Part shown: positions 57,980 through 62,767 of the stretch, one piece after another
How positions within the stretch are numbered: position 1 is the first letter of the stretch
Layout of the letters: each line of letters opens with the position of its first letter
Origin: Flavobacterium palustre
GTDB lineage: Bacteria > Bacteroidota > Bacteroidia > Flavobacteriales > Flavobacteriaceae
Assembly (NCBI RefSeq): GCF_014639535.1
Contig: NZ_BMGA01000003.1
Span: 186,001-250,000 of the forward strand
Direction of reading: 5' to 3'
Length of the DNA: 64,000 bases
Program-made: the position numbers and the translations under genes
Notes under the pieces: generated by a model
What the model saw: the letters and a program-made list of their open reading frames with translations, nothing else
What the model was told of the DNA's origin: nothing
Databases searched by the model: none

Positions 57980-58447
57980 ATGAAAAACAAAACAATAGAT
58001 TACATCTTAAGAGCGACCTGGCAGGCTGTTTCCAGAATGTACAACGAAGAAGCCACCAAATATGGCGCTACGATGGCAACCGGATTTGCATTGTTAAGTA
58101 TCGATAAAGAAAAAGGAACGCCATCGACGGCTTTAGGCCCTAAAATGGGAATGGAAGCTACAAGCCTGACCCGCACCCTGAAATCGATGGAAGAAAAAGG
58201 ATTAATCATTAAAAAGAAAAATCCCAATGATGGTCGTGGGGTATTGATTTACCTGACGGATTATGGCAAAGAAAAAAGAGCCTTGTCTAAAAGTACCGTC
58301 ATTCAGTTTAATGAAAGTATTAAAAAACATATTTCGGACGAAAAATGGGAACATTTTATAGAAGTTGCCGAAACCATCAACAAATTAATACACGATAAAA
58401 AAATATTTAATCAATCTGAAAATACAGAAGATGAAACGTACCATTAA
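57980..58447 (+). CDS. MarR-family transcriptional regulator of the fad operon
   Basis: A 155-residue winged-helix repressor. The DNA-binding part (about 45-105) contains PSTALGPKMGMEATSLTRTL, EEKGLI and the wing NPNDGRGVLIYLT. The end of the gene overlaps fadN by 17 bases, so regulator and enzymes are one transcript. MarR proteins usually respond to small aromatic or acyl ligands; acyl-CoA is a natural candidate given the operon, but this is inference. Confidence 0.93.
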   Translation: MKNKTIDYILRATWQAVSRMYNEEATKYGATMATGFALLSIDKEKGTPSTALGPKMGMEATSLTRTLKSMEEKGLIIKKKNPNDGRGVLIYLTDYGKEKRALSKSTVIQFNESIKKHISDEKWEHFIEVAETINKLIHDKKIFNQSENTEDETYH

Positions 58448-60821
58448 AAAAGTTGCCGTAGTAGGTTCAGGAATCATGGGTTCGGGCATTGCTTGTCATT
58501 TTGCCAACATCGGTGTGGAAGTCTTACTTTTGGATATTATCCCAAAGGAACTTAACGAAGCTGAAAGTAAAAAAGGACTCACTCTGGAAAGTAAAGTGGT
58601 TAGAAACCGAATTGTAAATGAACATTTGGCTAATTCATTAAAATCCAAACCTTCCCCTATTTACAGCGCAAAGTTCGCTAGTAGAATCAGCACCGGAAAC
58701 ACTACGGATGATATGGCAAAAATTGCCGGTGTAGATTGGATTATTGAAGTAGTGGTGGAACGTTTGGATATTAAGAAATTAGTTTTCGAACAAATTGACC
58801 AATACAGAACTCCTGGAACTTTAGTGACTTCGAATACTTCCGGAATTCCGATTCATTTTATGAGTGAAGGTCGTTCGGAAGATTTCCAGAAACATTTTTG
58901 CGGAACACACTTTTTTAATCCGGCGCGTTACTTAAAATTATTCGAAATTATTCCGGGACCAAAAACCTCATCTGAAGTATTGGATTTCTTGAAAAATTAC
59001 GGAGAACAGTTCTTAGGAAAAACTTCGGTTGTTGCAAAAGATACTCCGGCATTTATTGGAAACAGAATTGGCGTTTTCGGGATTCAGAGTTTGTTTCATT
59101 TGGTAAAAGAAATGGGATTAACCATCGAGGAGGTAGATAAATTAACAGGACCTGTAATTGGTCGTCCAAAATCGGCTACTTTTAGAACGGTAGATGTAGT
59201 TGGTTTAGACACTTTGGTGCATGTTGCCAATGGAATCTATGAAAATTGTCCAGAAGACGAAGCTCATGAGTTATTACAACTTCCGGAATTCATCAAAAAA
59301 ATGGTGGAAAACAAATGGTTCGGAAGCAAAACTGCACAGGGATTTTACAAAAAAGTGGATAAAGATATTCTTTCCTTAGATTTAGATACGCTAGAATATC
59401 GTCCAGCTAAAAAAGCTTCTTTTGCGACTTTAGAACTCACCAAAACCATCGAAAAACCTATCGATCGTTTTAAAGTTTTAATCAAAGGACAGGACAAAGC
59501 GGGTGAATTTTACAGAAAAAGCTTCGCTGCATTATTTACTTATGTTTCGAATAGAGTTCCTGAAATCTCAGACGAATTATACAAAATTGACGATGCCATG
59601 AAAGCCGGTTTTGGCTGGGAAAACGGACCATTCGAAATTTGGGATTCGATAGGAGTTTTAAAAGGATTCGAACTGATAAAATCCGAAGGACACACTGCCG
59701 CTCCTTGGATCAATGAAATGTTGGCTTCAGGAAACAATAGCTTTTACACTGTCAAAGAAGGAGCTACTTATTTTTATGATATTTCCAAAAAATCGCAGGA
59801 AAAAGTGCCTGGACAAGATGCTTTTATTATTCTGAATAACATTCGCGAAAGCAAAAAAATATGGGGTAACAGTGGTGCTATCATCGAAGATTTGGGCGAC
59901 GGAATTTTAAATATCGAATTCAAATCGAAAATGAATACTATTGGTGGCGATGTTTTACAAGCTATCAATAAAGGAATTGATTTAGCCGAAAAAGAATATT
60001 CAGGATTGGTTATTGGAAATCAGGCAGCTAATTTCTCTGTTGGTGCCAATATCGGAATGATATTCATGATGGCAGTCGAACAGGAATACGAAGAACTAAA
60101 TTTAGCTATCAAAATGTTTCAGGACACGATGATGCGCGTGCGTTATTCTTCAATTCCTGTAGTAGTTGCGCCTCACGGAATGACTTTTGGCGGCGGATGC
60201 GAAATGAGCTTACACGCCGATAAAGTGGTTGCTACCGCAGAAACCTATATGGGATTGGTGGAATTTGGCGTTGGAGTGATTCCCGGTGGTGGCGGTTCGA
60301 AAGAGATGACTTTGCGTGCGGCTGATTTATTCCGTAAAAATGATGTGGAATTGAACACCTTACAGGAATATTTCTTAACTATTGCAATGGCTAAAGTCTC
60401 AACTTCCGGATATGAAGCTTTTGATACCGGTCTATTACAACACGGGAAAGACATTATTGTGGTGAACAAAGACCGCCAAATTGCTGAAGCCAAAAAACAC
60501 GCATTGTTAATGGCAGAAGCGGGTTACACCCAGCCTATCAGAAGAAATGACATCAAAGTTTTAGGAAAACAGGCTTTAGGGATGTTCTTAGTAGGAACCG
60601 ACCAAATGGTTGCCGGAAGGTACATCTCTGAACACGATAAAAAAATCGCTAATAAACTGGCTTATGTGATGGCCGGAGGCGATTTATCCGAACCGACATT
60701 GGTTTCTGAACAATATTTACTCGATTTAGAAAGAGAAGCGTTCTTATCACTTTGTACCGAAAGAAAAACATTGGAACGCATTCAATATATGTTGAAAGCG
60801 GGGAAACCGTTGAGAAATTAA
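58431..60821 (+). CDS. fadN: 3-hydroxyacyl-CoA dehydrogenase / enoyl-CoA hydratase, FadN-type
   Basis: A 796-residue bifunctional beta-oxidation enzyme. Order: NAD-binding domain (VAVVGSGIMGSGIACHF, about 8-24), hydroxyacyl-CoA dehydrogenase C-terminal domains (HFFNPARYLKLFEII near 160; DVVGLDTLVHVANGIY near 260), then a crotonase domain at about 480-700 (GANIGMIF, then PHGMTFGGGCEMSLHAD, then GVIPGGGGSKEM). This dehydrogenase-first order and length match Bacillus FadN, the reverse of E. coli FadB. The next catabolic gene would be fadA, but a RAYT unit lies between. The stop codon is two bases from the first repeat hairpin. Confidence 0.94.
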   Translation: MKRTIKKVAVVGSGIMGSGIACHFANIGVEVLLLDIIPKELNEAESKKGLTLESKVVRNRIVNEHLANSLKSKPSPIYSAKFASRISTGNTTDDMAKIAGVDWIIEVVVERLDIKKLVFEQIDQYRTPGTLVTSNTSGIPIHFMSEGRSEDFQKHFCGTHFFNPARYLKLFEIIPGPKTSSEVLDFLKNYGEQFLGKTSVVAKDTPAFIGNRIGVFGIQSLFHLVKEMGLTIEEVDKLTGPVIGRPKSATFRTVDVVGLDTLVHVANGIYENCPEDEAHELLQLPEFIKKMVENKWFGSKTAQGFYKKVDKDILSLDLDTLEYRPAKKASFATLELTKTIEKPIDRFKVLIKGQDKAGEFYRKSFAALFTYVSNRVPEISDELYKIDDAMKAGFGWENGPFEIWDSIGVLKGFELIKSEGHTAAPWINEMLASGNNSFYTVKEGATYFYDISKKSQEKVPGQDAFIILNNIRESKKIWGNSGAIIEDLGDGILNIEFKSKMNTIGGDVLQAINKGIDLAEKEYSGLVIGNQAANFSVGANIGMIFMMAVEQEYEELNLAIKMFQDTMMRVRYSSIPVVVAPHGMTFGGGCEMSLHADKVVATAETYMGLVEFGVGVIPGGGGSKEMTLRAADLFRKNDVELNTLQEYFLTIAMAKVSTSGYEAFDTGLLQHGKDIIVVNKDRQIAEAKKHALLMAEAGYTQPIRRNDIKVLGKQALGMFLVGTDQMVAGRYISEHDKKIANKLAYVMAGGDLSEPTLVSEQYLLDLEREAFLSLCTERKTLERIQYMLKAGKPLRN

Positions 60822-60823
60822 AA

Positions 60824-60844
60824 GCTCCGTAGGAGCAAACTGTT
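60824..60844 (+). repeat. REP hairpin 1
   Basis: Stem-loop GCTCC-GTA-GGAGC followed by the tail AAACTGTT, then GATAGAAAAA. Begins two bases after the fadN stop codon. Confidence 0.85.
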
Positions 60845-60870
60845 GATAGAAAAAGCGTTGCAATATTAAT

Positions 60871-60893
60871 AAGCTCCGTAGGAGCGACCTGTT
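60871..60893 (+). repeat. REP hairpin 2, left end of the RAYT unit
   Basis: GCTCC-GTA-GGAGC with tail GACCTGTT. The 23 bases are an exact inverted copy of 61369-61391 on the other side of the transposase gene. Confidence 0.92.
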
Positions 60894-60904
60894 AATCGAT
60901 TATT

Positions 60905-61366
60905 ATGGCAAATACCTATTCACAAATTTATATTCAAATTGTTTTTGCTGTTAAAGGAAGACAAAATCTCATTATAAAAGAAAACCGTGAAGAATTACAT
61001 AAATTTATTACAGGTATTGTTTCAAATAGAGAACAAAAGTTATTAGCCATTTTTGCTATGCCGGATCACGTTCACATATTAGTTGGAATGAAACCAAATA
61101 TTTCAATTTCAGATTTAGTTAGAGATATAAAAGCAGCTTCATCTAAATTTATTAATGATAGCAAATGGATTAATGGAAAATTTAATTGGCAGGAAGGTTA
61201 TGGAGCATTTTCATACTCCAAAAGCCAGTTGGATAATGTAATAAAATACATTTTAAATCAAGAAAAACATCATAAAAAACAAACGTTTAAAGAAGAATAT
61301 CACTCCTTTTTAGAAAAATTTGAAATAAAATATGATGAAAAATATTTGTTTGAATGGATTGAATAA
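60905..61366 (+). CDS. Y1/HUH transposase, REP-associated (IS200/IS605 TnpA-like)
   Basis: A 153-residue single-strand DNA nuclease of the HUH type. The metal-binding motif is H55-V-H57 (MPDHVHILV). The catalytic tyrosine is Y115 in the Y-x3-Q signature (YILNQ). The N-terminus IYIQIVFAVKGRQNLI is typical of the Bacteroidota branch. All key residues are intact and no frameshift is seen, so the protein should be active. It would nick and rejoin next to the flanking hairpins. There is no tnpB gene. Base composition is like the neighbours, so entry is not recent or came from a relative. Inference: it maintains or spreads the surrounding REP hairpins. Confidence 0.9.
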   Translation: MANTYSQIYIQIVFAVKGRQNLIIKENREELHKFITGIVSNREQKLLAIFAMPDHVHILVGMKPNISISDLVRDIKAASSKFINDSKWINGKFNWQEGYGAFSYSKSQLDNVIKYILNQEKHHKKQTFKEEYHSFLEKFEIKYDEKYLFEWIE

Positions 61367-61368
61367 TA

Positions 61369-61391
61369 AACAGGTCGCTCCTACGGAGCTT
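61369..61391 (-). repeat. REP hairpin 3, right end of the RAYT unit
   Basis: Reverse complement of hairpin 2 over all 23 bases; on the minus strand GCTCC-GTA-GGAGC then GACCTGTT. Confidence 0.92.
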
Positions 61392-61412
61392 CCTAACAAA
61401 TACGCAATTTAA

Positions 61413-61440
61413 TGCTACAAACAGTAAGCCTCTAAGAGGC
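61413..61440 (-). repeat. REP hairpin 4
   Basis: On the minus strand GCCTC-TTA-GAGGC followed by TTACTGTTTGTAG. The stem sequence differs from hairpins 1-3 but still pairs fully, and the CTGTT tail is kept. Confidence 0.8.
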
Positions 61441-61485
61441 AAATAGCAGAGGTAAAATAACATCATAATTTATATTTACTGAAAT

Positions 61486-61512
61486 GACCTCGTAGAGGTC
61501 AACTGTTTGTAG
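61486..61512 (+). repeat. REP hairpin 5
   Basis: GACCTC-GTA-GAGGTC (6-bp stem) followed by AACTGTTTGTAG, the same tail as hairpin 4. Confidence 0.82.
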
Positions 61513-61537
61513 AAAAAATAATTTGAATTTCAATTTA

Positions 61538-61558
61538 GCTCCCTAGGAGCAATCTGTA
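61538..61558 (+). repeat. REP hairpin 6
   Basis: GCTCC-CTA-GGAGC followed by AATCTGTAAA. It is 22 bases before the fadA start codon, so it sits in the translation-initiation region of fadA. Confidence 0.78.
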
Positions 61559-61579: not shown

Positions 61580-62767
61580 ATGAAAAACACGACCGCATAT
61601 ATCGTTTCTGCCTATCGCACTGCCGTGGGAAAAGCTCCTAAAGGACTGTTCCGATTTAAAAGACCGGATGAATTGGCAGCAGAAACCATCCAACACATGA
61701 TGAATGAATTACCGGATTTTGACAAAAAACGTATTGATGATGTTATGGTGGGCAACGCCATGCCTGAAGCTGAACAAGGTTTGAATTTTGGTCGTCTAAT
61801 CTCGTTAATGGGATTGGAAATCAATGATGTTCCCGGAGTTACGGTCAATCGTTATTGCGCCTCGGGACTGGAAACTATCGGGATGGCAACAGCCCGAATC
61901 CAATCGGGAATGGCCGATTGTATTATTGCAGGTGGTGCCGAAAGCATGAGTTTTATTCCAATGGGAGGTTACAAACCCACTCCTGATTATGCTCTTGCCA
62001 AAGCAGGACATGAAGATTATTACTGGGGAATGGGACTGACAGCCGAAGCCGTTGCAAAACAGTTTAATATTTCCAGAGAAGATCAGGATTTATTTGCCTA
62101 TAATTCACATCAAAAAGCATTAAAAGCGCAAGCAGAAGACAAATTTGACTCACAAATTGTTCCCATTACTGTTGAACAAACTTTTATTAATGCAAAAGGT
62201 AAAAAAGAAACCACATCTTACACTGTCAATAAAGACGAAGGTCCCAGAGCAGATACATCGCTGGAAGCATTAGCCAAATTAAGACCCGTTTTTGCAGCCG
62301 ACGGAAGCGTTACTGCCGGAACTTCATCGCAAATGAGTGATGGCGCCGCATTTGTTCTAATTATGAGCGAAGAATTGGTCAAAGAACTAAACTTAAAGCC
62401 TATAGCCCGATTAGTAAATTATGCTTCGGCTGGAGTTGAACCAAGAATCATGGGAATAGGCCCTGTAAAAGCCATTCCAAAAGCATTAAAACAAGCCGGA
62501 TTACATTTAAAAGACATTGATTTGATTGAATTAAACGAAGCCTTTGCCTCACAATCCTTAGCCGTAATCAGAGAATTAGGATTGAATCCGGATATTGTAA
62601 ATGTAAACGGAGGCGCTATTGCTTTAGGACATCCATTAGGCTGCACAGGAGCCAAATTATCTGTTCAGCTATTCGATGAAATGAAACGACGCGGCAATAA
62701 ATACGGAATGGTTACAATGTGTGTGGGAACAGGACAAGGAGCTGCGGGGATTTTCGAACTTTTGTAA
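61580..62767 (+). CDS. fadA: Acetyl-CoA C-acyltransferase (3-ketoacyl-CoA thiolase)
   Basis: A 395-residue thiolase that splits 3-ketoacyl-CoA with CoA in the last step of beta-oxidation. The nucleophile is C93 (NRYCASGLE), with H351 (ALGHPLGCTGAK) and C381 (MCVGTGQG) completing the active site. The length is normal. In the fadN-fadA-fadE order it is the second enzyme gene, here pushed 758 bases from fadN by the RAYT unit and its hairpins. Confidence 0.97.
   Translation: MKNTTAYIVSAYRTAVGKAPKGLFRFKRPDELAAETIQHMMNELPDFDKKRIDDVMVGNAMPEAEQGLNFGRLISLMGLEINDVPGVTVNRYCASGLETIGMATARIQSGMADCIIAGGAESMSFIPMGGYKPTPDYALAKAGHEDYYWGMGLTAEAVAKQFNISREDQDLFAYNSHQKALKAQAEDKFDSQIVPITVEQTFINAKGKKETTSYTVNKDEGPRADTSLEALAKLRPVFAADGSVTAGTSSQMSDGAAFVLIMSEELVKELNLKPIARLVNYASAGVEPRIMGIGPVKAIPKALKQAGLHLKDIDLIELNEAFASQSLAVIRELGLNPDIVNVNGGAIALGHPLGCTGAKLSVQLFDEMKRRGNKYGMVTMCVGTGQGAAGIFELL

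What the first reader, a model, noticed from the sequence alone, without database searches (positions are those of the whole stretch)
60824..61558. A REP/RAYT unit with six covarying hairpins splits the beta-oxidation operon
Seen: six short stem-loops surround an intact Y1 transposase gene. All have a three-base NTA loop (GTA four times, TTA and CTA once each) and a CTGT tail. The stems differ (GCTCC, GCCTC, GACCTC) but each pairs perfectly, the mark of selection on structure. Two of the hairpins form an exact 23-bp inverted repeat whose inner ends lie 11 bases and two bases from the transposase start and stop. Tails of hairpins 4 and 5 share CTGTTTGTAG. Known: REP-associated tyrosine transposases (RAYTs) bind hairpins of this kind. 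Inference: this is a Bacteroidota REPtron whose hairpin-tail rule (NTA loop, CTGT tail) can be read from one locus.
Basis: partly seen in the sequence, partly recalled or inferred. Interest (0 to 1): 0.78.

Follow-up and report, generated by a model that had tools for sequence, protein, structure and literature searches.

The report
Transposase gene with matching DNA-hairpin family
A small transposase gene in a Flavobacterium-type genome is surrounded by paired DNA hairpins that carry a short matching tail, and clusters of the same tailed hairpins without the gene lie elsewhere in this genome and in most relatives examined, which suggests that such transposases feed their own families of mini-repeats.

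Summary
In detail: six perfect NTA-loop hairpins with a CTGT tail surround an intact Y1 transposase gene; no other such hairpin lies in the 64 kb. By published motifs the protein is a TnpAY1 'subclass 1.2' enzyme (DHVH, WQ, YxxxQxxHH), IS200-like and not a canonical RAYT; the defining paper lists 'no' REPs for it. Here 191 of 200 related Y1 loci have two or more hairpins within 250 bp. Another clade, next to hemF, has core ATATTTATAG. In 30 chosen genomes, copies away from the gene's own ends (two or more) occur in 4 of 7 with a fad-clade gene and 0 of 23 without; for the other core, ten or more in 6 of 10 and 2 of 20. That coupling is real but not tight. The fadN-fadA position recurs in 69 of 80 named relatives, so no recent splitting. 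Best reading: a REPIN-like system with a clade-specific 3' tail. Binding, cleavage and movement are inferred.

The parts
60824..60849 (+). H1, outer hairpin GCTCC-GTA-GGAGC (60824-60836), 3 nt, full core CTGTTGATAG (60840-60849)
   Evidence: R1 37.1 bits
60873..60898 (+). H2, inner hairpin GCTCC-GTA-GGAGC with half core CTGTTAATCG (no TAG)
   Evidence: R1 38.7 bits
60905..61366 (+). tnpA, 153-aa Y1 (HUH) transposase, TnpAY1 subclass 1.2 by motif (DHVH, WQ, YILNQEKHH)
   Evidence: Pfam PF01797 94.6 bits; NCBIfam IS200 74.4 bits; AlphaFold model pLDDT 80.9 matches IS200-type TnpA chains
61364..61389 (-). H3, inner hairpin in inverted orientation (61377-61389) with half core CTGTTTATTA that overlaps the tnpA stop codon
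   Evidence: R1 36.9 bits
61415..61440 (-). H4, outer hairpin in inverted orientation, GCCTC-TTA-GAGGC, full core CTGTTTGTAG
   Evidence: R1 35.8 bits
61485..61512 (+). H5, outer hairpin of an extra half unit, TGACCTC-GTA-GAGGTCA, full core CTGTTTGTAG (61503-61512)
   Evidence: R1 39.5 bits
61538..61563 (+). H6, inner hairpin of the extra half unit, GCTCC-CTA-GGAGC, degenerate half core CTGTAAAACA
   Evidence: partial R1 match, 15.9 bits
60871..60893 (+). left arm of exact 23-bp inverted repeat made by H2 and H3
   Evidence: part of I1
61369..61391 (-). right arm of the same inverted repeat
   Evidence: part of I1
58431..60821 (+). upstream neighbour: 3-hydroxyacyl-CoA dehydrogenase / enoyl-CoA hydratase (fadN-like)
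61580..62767 (+). downstream neighbour: acetyl-CoA C-acyltransferase (fadA-like)

Best explanation
The unit is a REPIN-like mobile-repeat system driven by a TnpAY1 'subclass 1.2' transposase. Grammar: O> I> tnpA <I <O, where an outer hairpin (5+ bp stem, 3-nt loop, mostly GTA) is followed after 3 nt by a 10-nt core CTGTTNRTAG and an inner hairpin keeps only about CTGTT. Inferred mechanism: when the strand with the GTA loop is single-stranded (as on the lagging-strand template), the hairpin folds, TnpA binds it, reads the core and cuts or joins near the hairpin-core boundary through Tyr115, so that O-I blocks are copied or moved in trans. Gene-less minis O> I> <I <O are the non-autonomous passengers. 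The core is the cognate tag: different TnpA clades go with different cores at their own ends. Shown: anatomy, fixed spacing, dispersed copies, clade-specific core at the gene's ends, a moderate tie between dispersed copies and the matching gene, purifying selection. Inferred: binding, cleavage, strand, movement.
For: Anchor test: 99 of 125 full tails within 600 bp of fad-site genes have a perfect 5-bp hairpin exactly 3 nt upstream, one hit in all 16 other offsets together; no such tail in 188 kb of outer flank; hemF clade 45 of 60, none at other offsets. 191 of 200 loci have two or more hairpins within 250 bp; 7.0-10.3 per kb near versus 0.25-0.92 per kb 1 kb away. Own genome: R1 finds the unit plus ten other places; all ten were fetched and each holds several tailed hairpins by eye, some with 4-nt loops or a mismatch. 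30 chosen genus genomes, hits more than 1 kb from the gene: R1 two or more in 4 of 7 with a fad-clade tnpA and 0 of 23 without (Fisher 0.001), one or more in 5 of 7 and 4 of 23 (0.014); R2 (ATATTTATAG) ten or more in 6 of 10 with a hemF-clade tnpA and 2 of 20 without (0.007). The window genome carries both clades and has 11 R1 hits away from the fad unit but no R2 hit at E 0.001 away from the hemF copy. In 15 of 20 stretches picked from mini-rich genomes two outer hairpins face each other, 6 of them with all four hairpins at about 50/40/50 bp. fad-site genes are intact in 74 of 75 loci; dN/dS median 0.08 in 66 pairs from 27 of the 75.
Against: The tie between gene and copies is loose: counting the gene's own ends would give 7 of 7 versus 0 of 23 and 10 of 10 versus 3 of 20, but those ends trained the models; without them G353 and G393 have no R1 copy, and G000, G273 and G295 no R2 copy. 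36 of the 38 R1 hits of G270 lie within about 13 kb of its gene, a local array. Five genomes without a hemF-clade gene have R2 hits (G254 18, G252 13, G265 5, G253 2, G257 1): relics, or another driver. Genomes are related, so Fisher values overstate independence. No clean empty site fixed the ends of a mini: G254 and G310 lack only O> I>, foot to foot, which replication slippage would also give. Five minis of the window genome are framed by an extra terminal repeat (around TTTAAACTTTTT), so another mover could carry them. The rows of the covariation counts were picked for perfect pairing. No biochemical evidence.
Confidence: 0.66

Rival explanations
1. Ordinary low-activity IS200/IS605 insertion: the hairpins are simply the IS ends, duplicated by slippage, and the scattered copies are MITE-like decayed ends.
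For: NCBIfam IS200 equivalog over cut-off; Foldseek's first 29 PDB matches are IS200-type transposase chains (ISDra2, IS608, 2fyx, 2f4f, 2ec2), E. coli TnpAREP only rank 30; YxxxQ motif; in several genomes only the gene's own ends are found.
Against: Ends are inverted and doubled; the window genome has two copies of this type, 67% identical; the neighbours are fadN and fadA, no second IS gene lies between; in six genomes 37-87 R2 hits far exceed the genes; mostly intact and under purifying selection.
Confidence: 0.2
2. Domesticated TnpA with hairpins used by the host (for example RNA processing or termination between fadN and fadA) and not for movement.
For: The fadN-tnpA-fadA order is kept in 69 of 80 named relatives, themselves the best 80 of 366; dN/dS about 0.08; inside the Chryseobacterium group tnpA identity follows fadA and fadN (Spearman 0.74 and 0.76).
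Against: Only 6 of 139 genus genomes with fadA have tnpA there (joined by coordinates); of 53 junctions without it 39 are 0-122 bp and none of the 53 has a CTGTT-type tail; minis at many unrelated sites.
Confidence: 0.1
3. On the address alone (compatible with the best explanation): the fadN-fadA junction is just a tolerant hotspot, and its repeated use says nothing about targeting by TnpA.
For: Other cargo occurs in the same junction: palindromes, inserts of about 420 bp with an ORF (117 aa in L133), longer inserts in L195 and L180; a single clade of all fad-site genes is not rejected (AU p 0.21).
Against: Between genera tnpA is more alike than the flanking genes (Flavobacterium-Chryseobacterium 0.78 versus fadN 0.67 and fadA 0.73) although inside the Chryseobacterium group it diverges faster (0.89 versus 0.96 and 0.97), which suggests more than one entry into the same place; a second clade sits behind hemF (15 loci).
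Confidence: 0.5

Closest known systems
TnpAY1 subclass 1.2 (Quentin et al. 2018, PMC6006769; abstract, section 12, first part of section 15 and passages read)
   Same: HuH motif DH[IV]H, W motif WQ, Y motif Y---Q--HH, about 150 aa with a C-terminal extension, Bacteroidetes, low copy number with diverged copies.
   Different: [quoted passage not shown] here 191 of 200 related loci have flanking hairpins and many genomes have dispersed copies.
REPtron / RAYT (TnpAREP) with REPs and REPINs (PMC6006769 sections; PMC8266576 passages; PMC3733652 abstract and one passage; PMC3116915 search listing only)
   Same: Y1 gene flanked by inverted hairpins; a conserved tag beside the hairpin; non-autonomous inverted copies in the genome; different gene types with different repeats.
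   Different: Protein is class 1 (YxxxQ), the tag is 3' of the hairpin at a 3-nt spacing and 10 nt long, no 5' GT[AG]G foot was seen, and the mini has four hairpins, not two.
IS200/IS605 TnpA elements (ISDra2, IS608; solved structures)
   Same: Protein family, fold, catalytic tyrosine and HUH motif.
   Different: IS608-type ends have one hairpin each on the same strand (recalled); here ends are inverted pairs of two hairpins, and copy number is low.
'RayT' genes beside abeS in Chryseobacterium (PMC11194056, passages)
   Same: Same bacterial group, Y1 transposases called RayT.
   Different: That paper names the genes only; no hairpins or REPs are described in the passages seen (whole word REP: 0 occurrences). 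Whether they are this subclass was not tested.

Membership tests
RAYT / TnpAREP (class 2) | Y motif Y---NP | tested here: not met
   YILNQEKHH; Y115 and Q119 invariant in 30 of 30 aligned relatives; definition from PMC6006769
RAYT / TnpAREP (class 2) | score over NCBIfam REP_Tyr_transpos cut-off | tested here: not met
   38.7 bits against cut-off 80
RAYT / TnpAREP (class 2) | 5' GT[AG]G at the foot of the hairpin | tested here: not met
   position counts over the 10 nt 5' of 86 outer, 111 inner and 49 hemF-type hairpins give no GT[AG]G consensus; only A at -1 is strong
RAYT / TnpAREP (class 2) | cognate palindromes flank the gene and are dispersed in the genome | tested here: met
   own genome; in other genomes copies beyond the gene's ends in 5 of 7 and 12 of 15
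IS200/IS605 (subclass 1.1) | TnpA of the IS200 family | tested here: met
   74.4 bits against cut-off 55
IS200/IS605 (subclass 1.1) | several near-identical copies per genome | tested here: not met
   two copies of this type, 67% identical, in the own genome
TnpAY1 subclass 1.2 | DH[IV]H, WQ, Y---Q--HH, about 148 aa | tested here: met
   window ORF read by eye; D54 H55 H57, W95 Q96, Y115, Q119, H123 invariant in 30 of 30, H122 less so. The paper's own HMM was not available
TnpAY1 subclass 1.2 | no associated REP (published) | tested here: not met
   191 of 200 related loci with two or more hairpins within 250 bp; 26 of the 200 are under 45% identical and may belong to other subclasses
REPIN (two inverted REPs) | two REPs in inverted orientation as one mobile unit | tested here: inconclusive
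   four hairpins O> I> <I <O instead of two in the best cases; mobility inferred from dispersal
any of the above | sequence-specific cleavage and strand transfer by the protein | not testable with these tools
   needs biochemistry

The most novel reading that the evidence does not exclude
Subclass 1.2 TnpAs of Bacteroidota form a separate class of REP system with a readable two-part code: a generic hairpin plus a 3' ten-base tail that is the specificity word of each transposase clade, with whole four-hairpin minis as passengers; and some clades enter a preferred address (after fadN, after hemF) again and again, perhaps because the end of the host gene imitates the tail (fadN ends CCGTTGAGAAATTAA, tail CTGTTGATAGAAA; this last idea was not tested).
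Probability: 0.18. Interest if true: 0.8.

Novelty: new variant of a known kind. Interest (0 to 1): 0.6.

Why it matters
REP/RAYT systems are described mostly from Proteobacteria with a 5' GTAG tag (PMC3733652 abstract), and how the protein picks its own repeat is only partly solved. Here a protein class published as having no REPs carries tailed hairpins at nearly every locus collected, with at least two clear tail words that go with two transposase clades. That gives natural pairs (CTGTTNRTAG and ATATTTATAG, shared stems, proteins about 67% identical, both in the window genome) for swapping residues and tails and reading specificity directly. It also offers a simple annotation rule for a repeat family of Flavobacterium and Chryseobacterium genomes.

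Tried and rejected
Canonical RAYT: rejected on motif, NCBIfam cut-off and lack of a 5' GTAG consensus. Recent insertion that splits the operon: rejected, since 69 of 80 named relatives have the gene there. Clean proof of several independent arrivals at fadN-fadA: not reached, AU p 0.21 for one clade; the argument rests on the identity comparison, and saturation of tnpA at about 78% is not excluded. Exact ends of a mini: not reached. Vehicles: no phage record matches at 1e-15, two plasmid records do (Bernardetia 65%, Persicobacter 40%). Print: searches of the held open-access library listed no paper on hairpins of subclass 1.2; most subscription papers are not held and supplements were not available. 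The C-GTA-G loop as an extra-stable DNA triloop is recalled; one search gave a listing only. Covariation counts are weak evidence because the rows were chosen for perfect pairing.

Counts to read with care: the 75 fad-site loci hold five species twice (L148-L152 repeat L010, L011, L017, L021, L025 by identical protein), so 70 are distinct, and duplicate rows entered the dN/dS pairs; G253 and G406 give the same places and are the same genome. The 80 named loci are the best 80 of 366. The 58 junctions are best hits of two searches, so close relatives are over-represented. The 30 genomes were chosen by me for their tnpA content, and the listing was cut, so for the six R2-rich genomes only the total hits are exact. 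The 20 stretches were mostly picked for facing pairs of hits. Clade membership of genomes is read from the tree (quick search, 31 of 190 inner branches starred).

Full report
What was checked. They are the only six places in 64 kb where a perfect 5-bp stem with an NTA loop is followed after 3 nt by CTGT; shuffles of the stretch give 0.002 per trial.

The gene. ORF 60905-61366 is a Y1 transposase (PF01797). It passes the NCBIfam IS200 cut-off and fails that for REP-associated transposases. Its motifs (DHVH, WQ, YILNQEKHH), length and phylum match subclass 1.2 of Quentin et al. 2018, whose table gives 'no' under REP. An AlphaFold model (mean pLDDT 80.9; the five models range from 80.9 to 40.3, 30 similar sequences in the alignment) finds IS200-type TnpA chains at ranks 1-29 and E. 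coli TnpAREP at rank 30 of the PDB.

Relatives. Of 80 named loci (the best 80 of 366), 69 have the gene between fadN and fadA, in Flavobacterium, Paenimyroides, Chryseobacterium, Kaistella and Epilithonimonas. In a sample of 150 genomes of the genus, 60 have a tnpA match at 1e-20 and 139 have fadA, but only 6 have the gene at that junction; these are exactly the hits of 84% identity or more. A second clade lies behind coproporphyrinogen oxidase (hemF; 15 of 200 loci; Pfam 390 bits in L005), and the own genome has one such copy, 67% identical (L005). Inside the Chryseobacterium group tnpA diverges faster than fadN and fadA (mean identity 0.89, 0.96, 0.97), yet between genera it is more alike than they are (Flavobacterium-Chryseobacterium 0.78, 0.67, 0.73; Paenimyroides-Chryseobacterium 0.85, 0.66, 0.72). 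This points to repeated horizontal entry at one address, but a single clade of the 70 distinct fad-site genes is not rejected (AU p 0.21), and the junction also takes other cargo: of 58 junctions read, 5 hold tnpA, 39 of the other 53 are 0-122 bp, 14 are longer.

The hairpin grammar. Near 200 tnpA loci (five species twice, 26 loci under 45% identity) 191 have at least two hairpins within 250 bp, 7.0-10.3 per kb against 0.25-0.92 per kb a kilobase away, in every identity class. Starting from the tail alone, 99 of 125 CTGTT[AT][AG]TAG tails near fad-site genes have a perfect hairpin exactly 3 nt upstream, and no such tail occurs in 188 kb of outer flank; hemF clade, AT[AG]TTTATAG: 45 of 60, with 4 tails (3 with a hairpin) in 23.5 kb of outer flank. 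Outer hairpins were sorted by the TAG end and inner ones by its lack; inner ones are uniform in other columns (A at -1 in 111 of 111, G after the stem in 109 of 111). In the window: H1 outer, H2 inner, gene, H3 inner inverted, H4 outer inverted, then an extra half unit H5 outer, H6 inner; outer-inner steps are 49, 51 and 51 bp. Other clades show further cores (for example ATTATTATAG at L158; tallies), less well sampled.

Dispersal. Model R1 (30 fad-type hairpins) finds 42 hits at E up to 10 in the own genome: the unit, the hemF copy weakly, and ten further places; at E 0.01 16 hits, 5 of them in the unit. The ten places and one R2-only place were fetched: five are alike four-hairpin minis by eye (L269 with no perfect 3-nt-loop stem), five are other arrays with tails of CTGTT or similar kind, and the R2-only place (L276) shows a single hairpin. 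R2 (24 hemF-type hairpins) finds at E 0.001 only the ends of the hemF copy. In 30 chosen genus genomes, leaving out hits within 1 kb of the gene: R1 copies in G000 11, G253 12, G338 6, G273 1, G270 38 (36 of them within about 13 kb of its gene), G353 0, G393 0; among the 23 without a fad-clade gene four have one hit and 19 none. R2: G338, G263, G335, G290, G356, G383 have 37-87 hits in all (list cut; at least 16 away from the gene counted for G263), G299 3 away from the gene, G000, G273 and G295 none; of the 20 without a hemF-clade gene G254 18, G252 13, G265 5, G253 2, G257 1 and 15 none. All 15 named genomes tried, chosen because they carry the gene, have 3-39 R1 hits; 12 have some away from the gene, G398, G403 and G407 none (counted by hand). 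Of twenty stretches read from other genomes 15 have two outer hairpins facing each other, 6 with all four hairpins at about 50/40/50 bp; L290, L291, L293, L295 and L296 do not fit.

One site with and without. A mini of G356 (L277) aligns over nearly its full length in seven other genomes of 26 searched; G254 and G310 lack the outer and inner hairpin of one side, with the break at the feet of the hairpins, and G301, G355 and G326 lack it altogether but with changed flanks.

Mechanism. From TnpAREP work (PMC8266576, passages) single-stranded hairpins are bound on one strand only and cut at a nearby dinucleotide, picked in one system by a tetranucleotide guide. By analogy the 10-nt core here would hold guide, cut site or both; which one is unknown. 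The GTA loop closed by C-G suggests that the GTA strand is the folded one (recalled chemistry). Everything past anatomy, dispersal and clade-specific cores is inference.

Verdict. Observation confirmed; interpretation partly right; a new variant of the REP/REPtron kind with a protein class thought to lack it. The tie of dispersed copies to the matching gene is positive but moderate.

Noticed in passing
L006 (G000:C1:1041300-1042800) and L007 (G000:C8:119800-121300): Two more Y1 ORFs of the genome have hairpins near them with another 3' tail: CGGATT-TGC-AATCCG (on both sides, inverted) and CAAGCG-TCG-CGCTTG (one seen), both followed by TGCCCGCAA; perhaps a further hairpin-tail class.
   Followed up: partly
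fadN-fadA junctions, e.g. L121, L133, L142, L198, L190, L195, L180: The junction is an insertion hotspot in the family: palindromic repeats, inserts of about 420 bp with an ORF (L133: 117 aa, MHRFKELNIWKKAMD..., four-helix-bundle / S23-like by recall), and longer inserts.
   Followed up: partly
L201 (G395), fadN-fadA junction, 79 bp: A gene-less outer-inner hairpin pair with a different tail (CATCCGGGTAG) sits alone between fadN and fadA.
   Followed up: no
L266, L267, L269, L270, L273: Five alike minis of the window genome are framed by an extra terminal repeat around TTTAAACTTTTT, beyond the hairpins.
   Followed up: no
L015 downstream of tnpA: A tandem array of hairpins at 53-bp steps with tail CTGTTTGTAG or CCGTTTGTAG.
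   Followed up: no
G270:C1:1031827-1048922 and G410 (genome of L058), C30:11734-12369: Dense local runs of R1 hits, many at steps of about 50 bp: tandem outer-inner arrays, in G270 around its tnpA.
   Followed up: no
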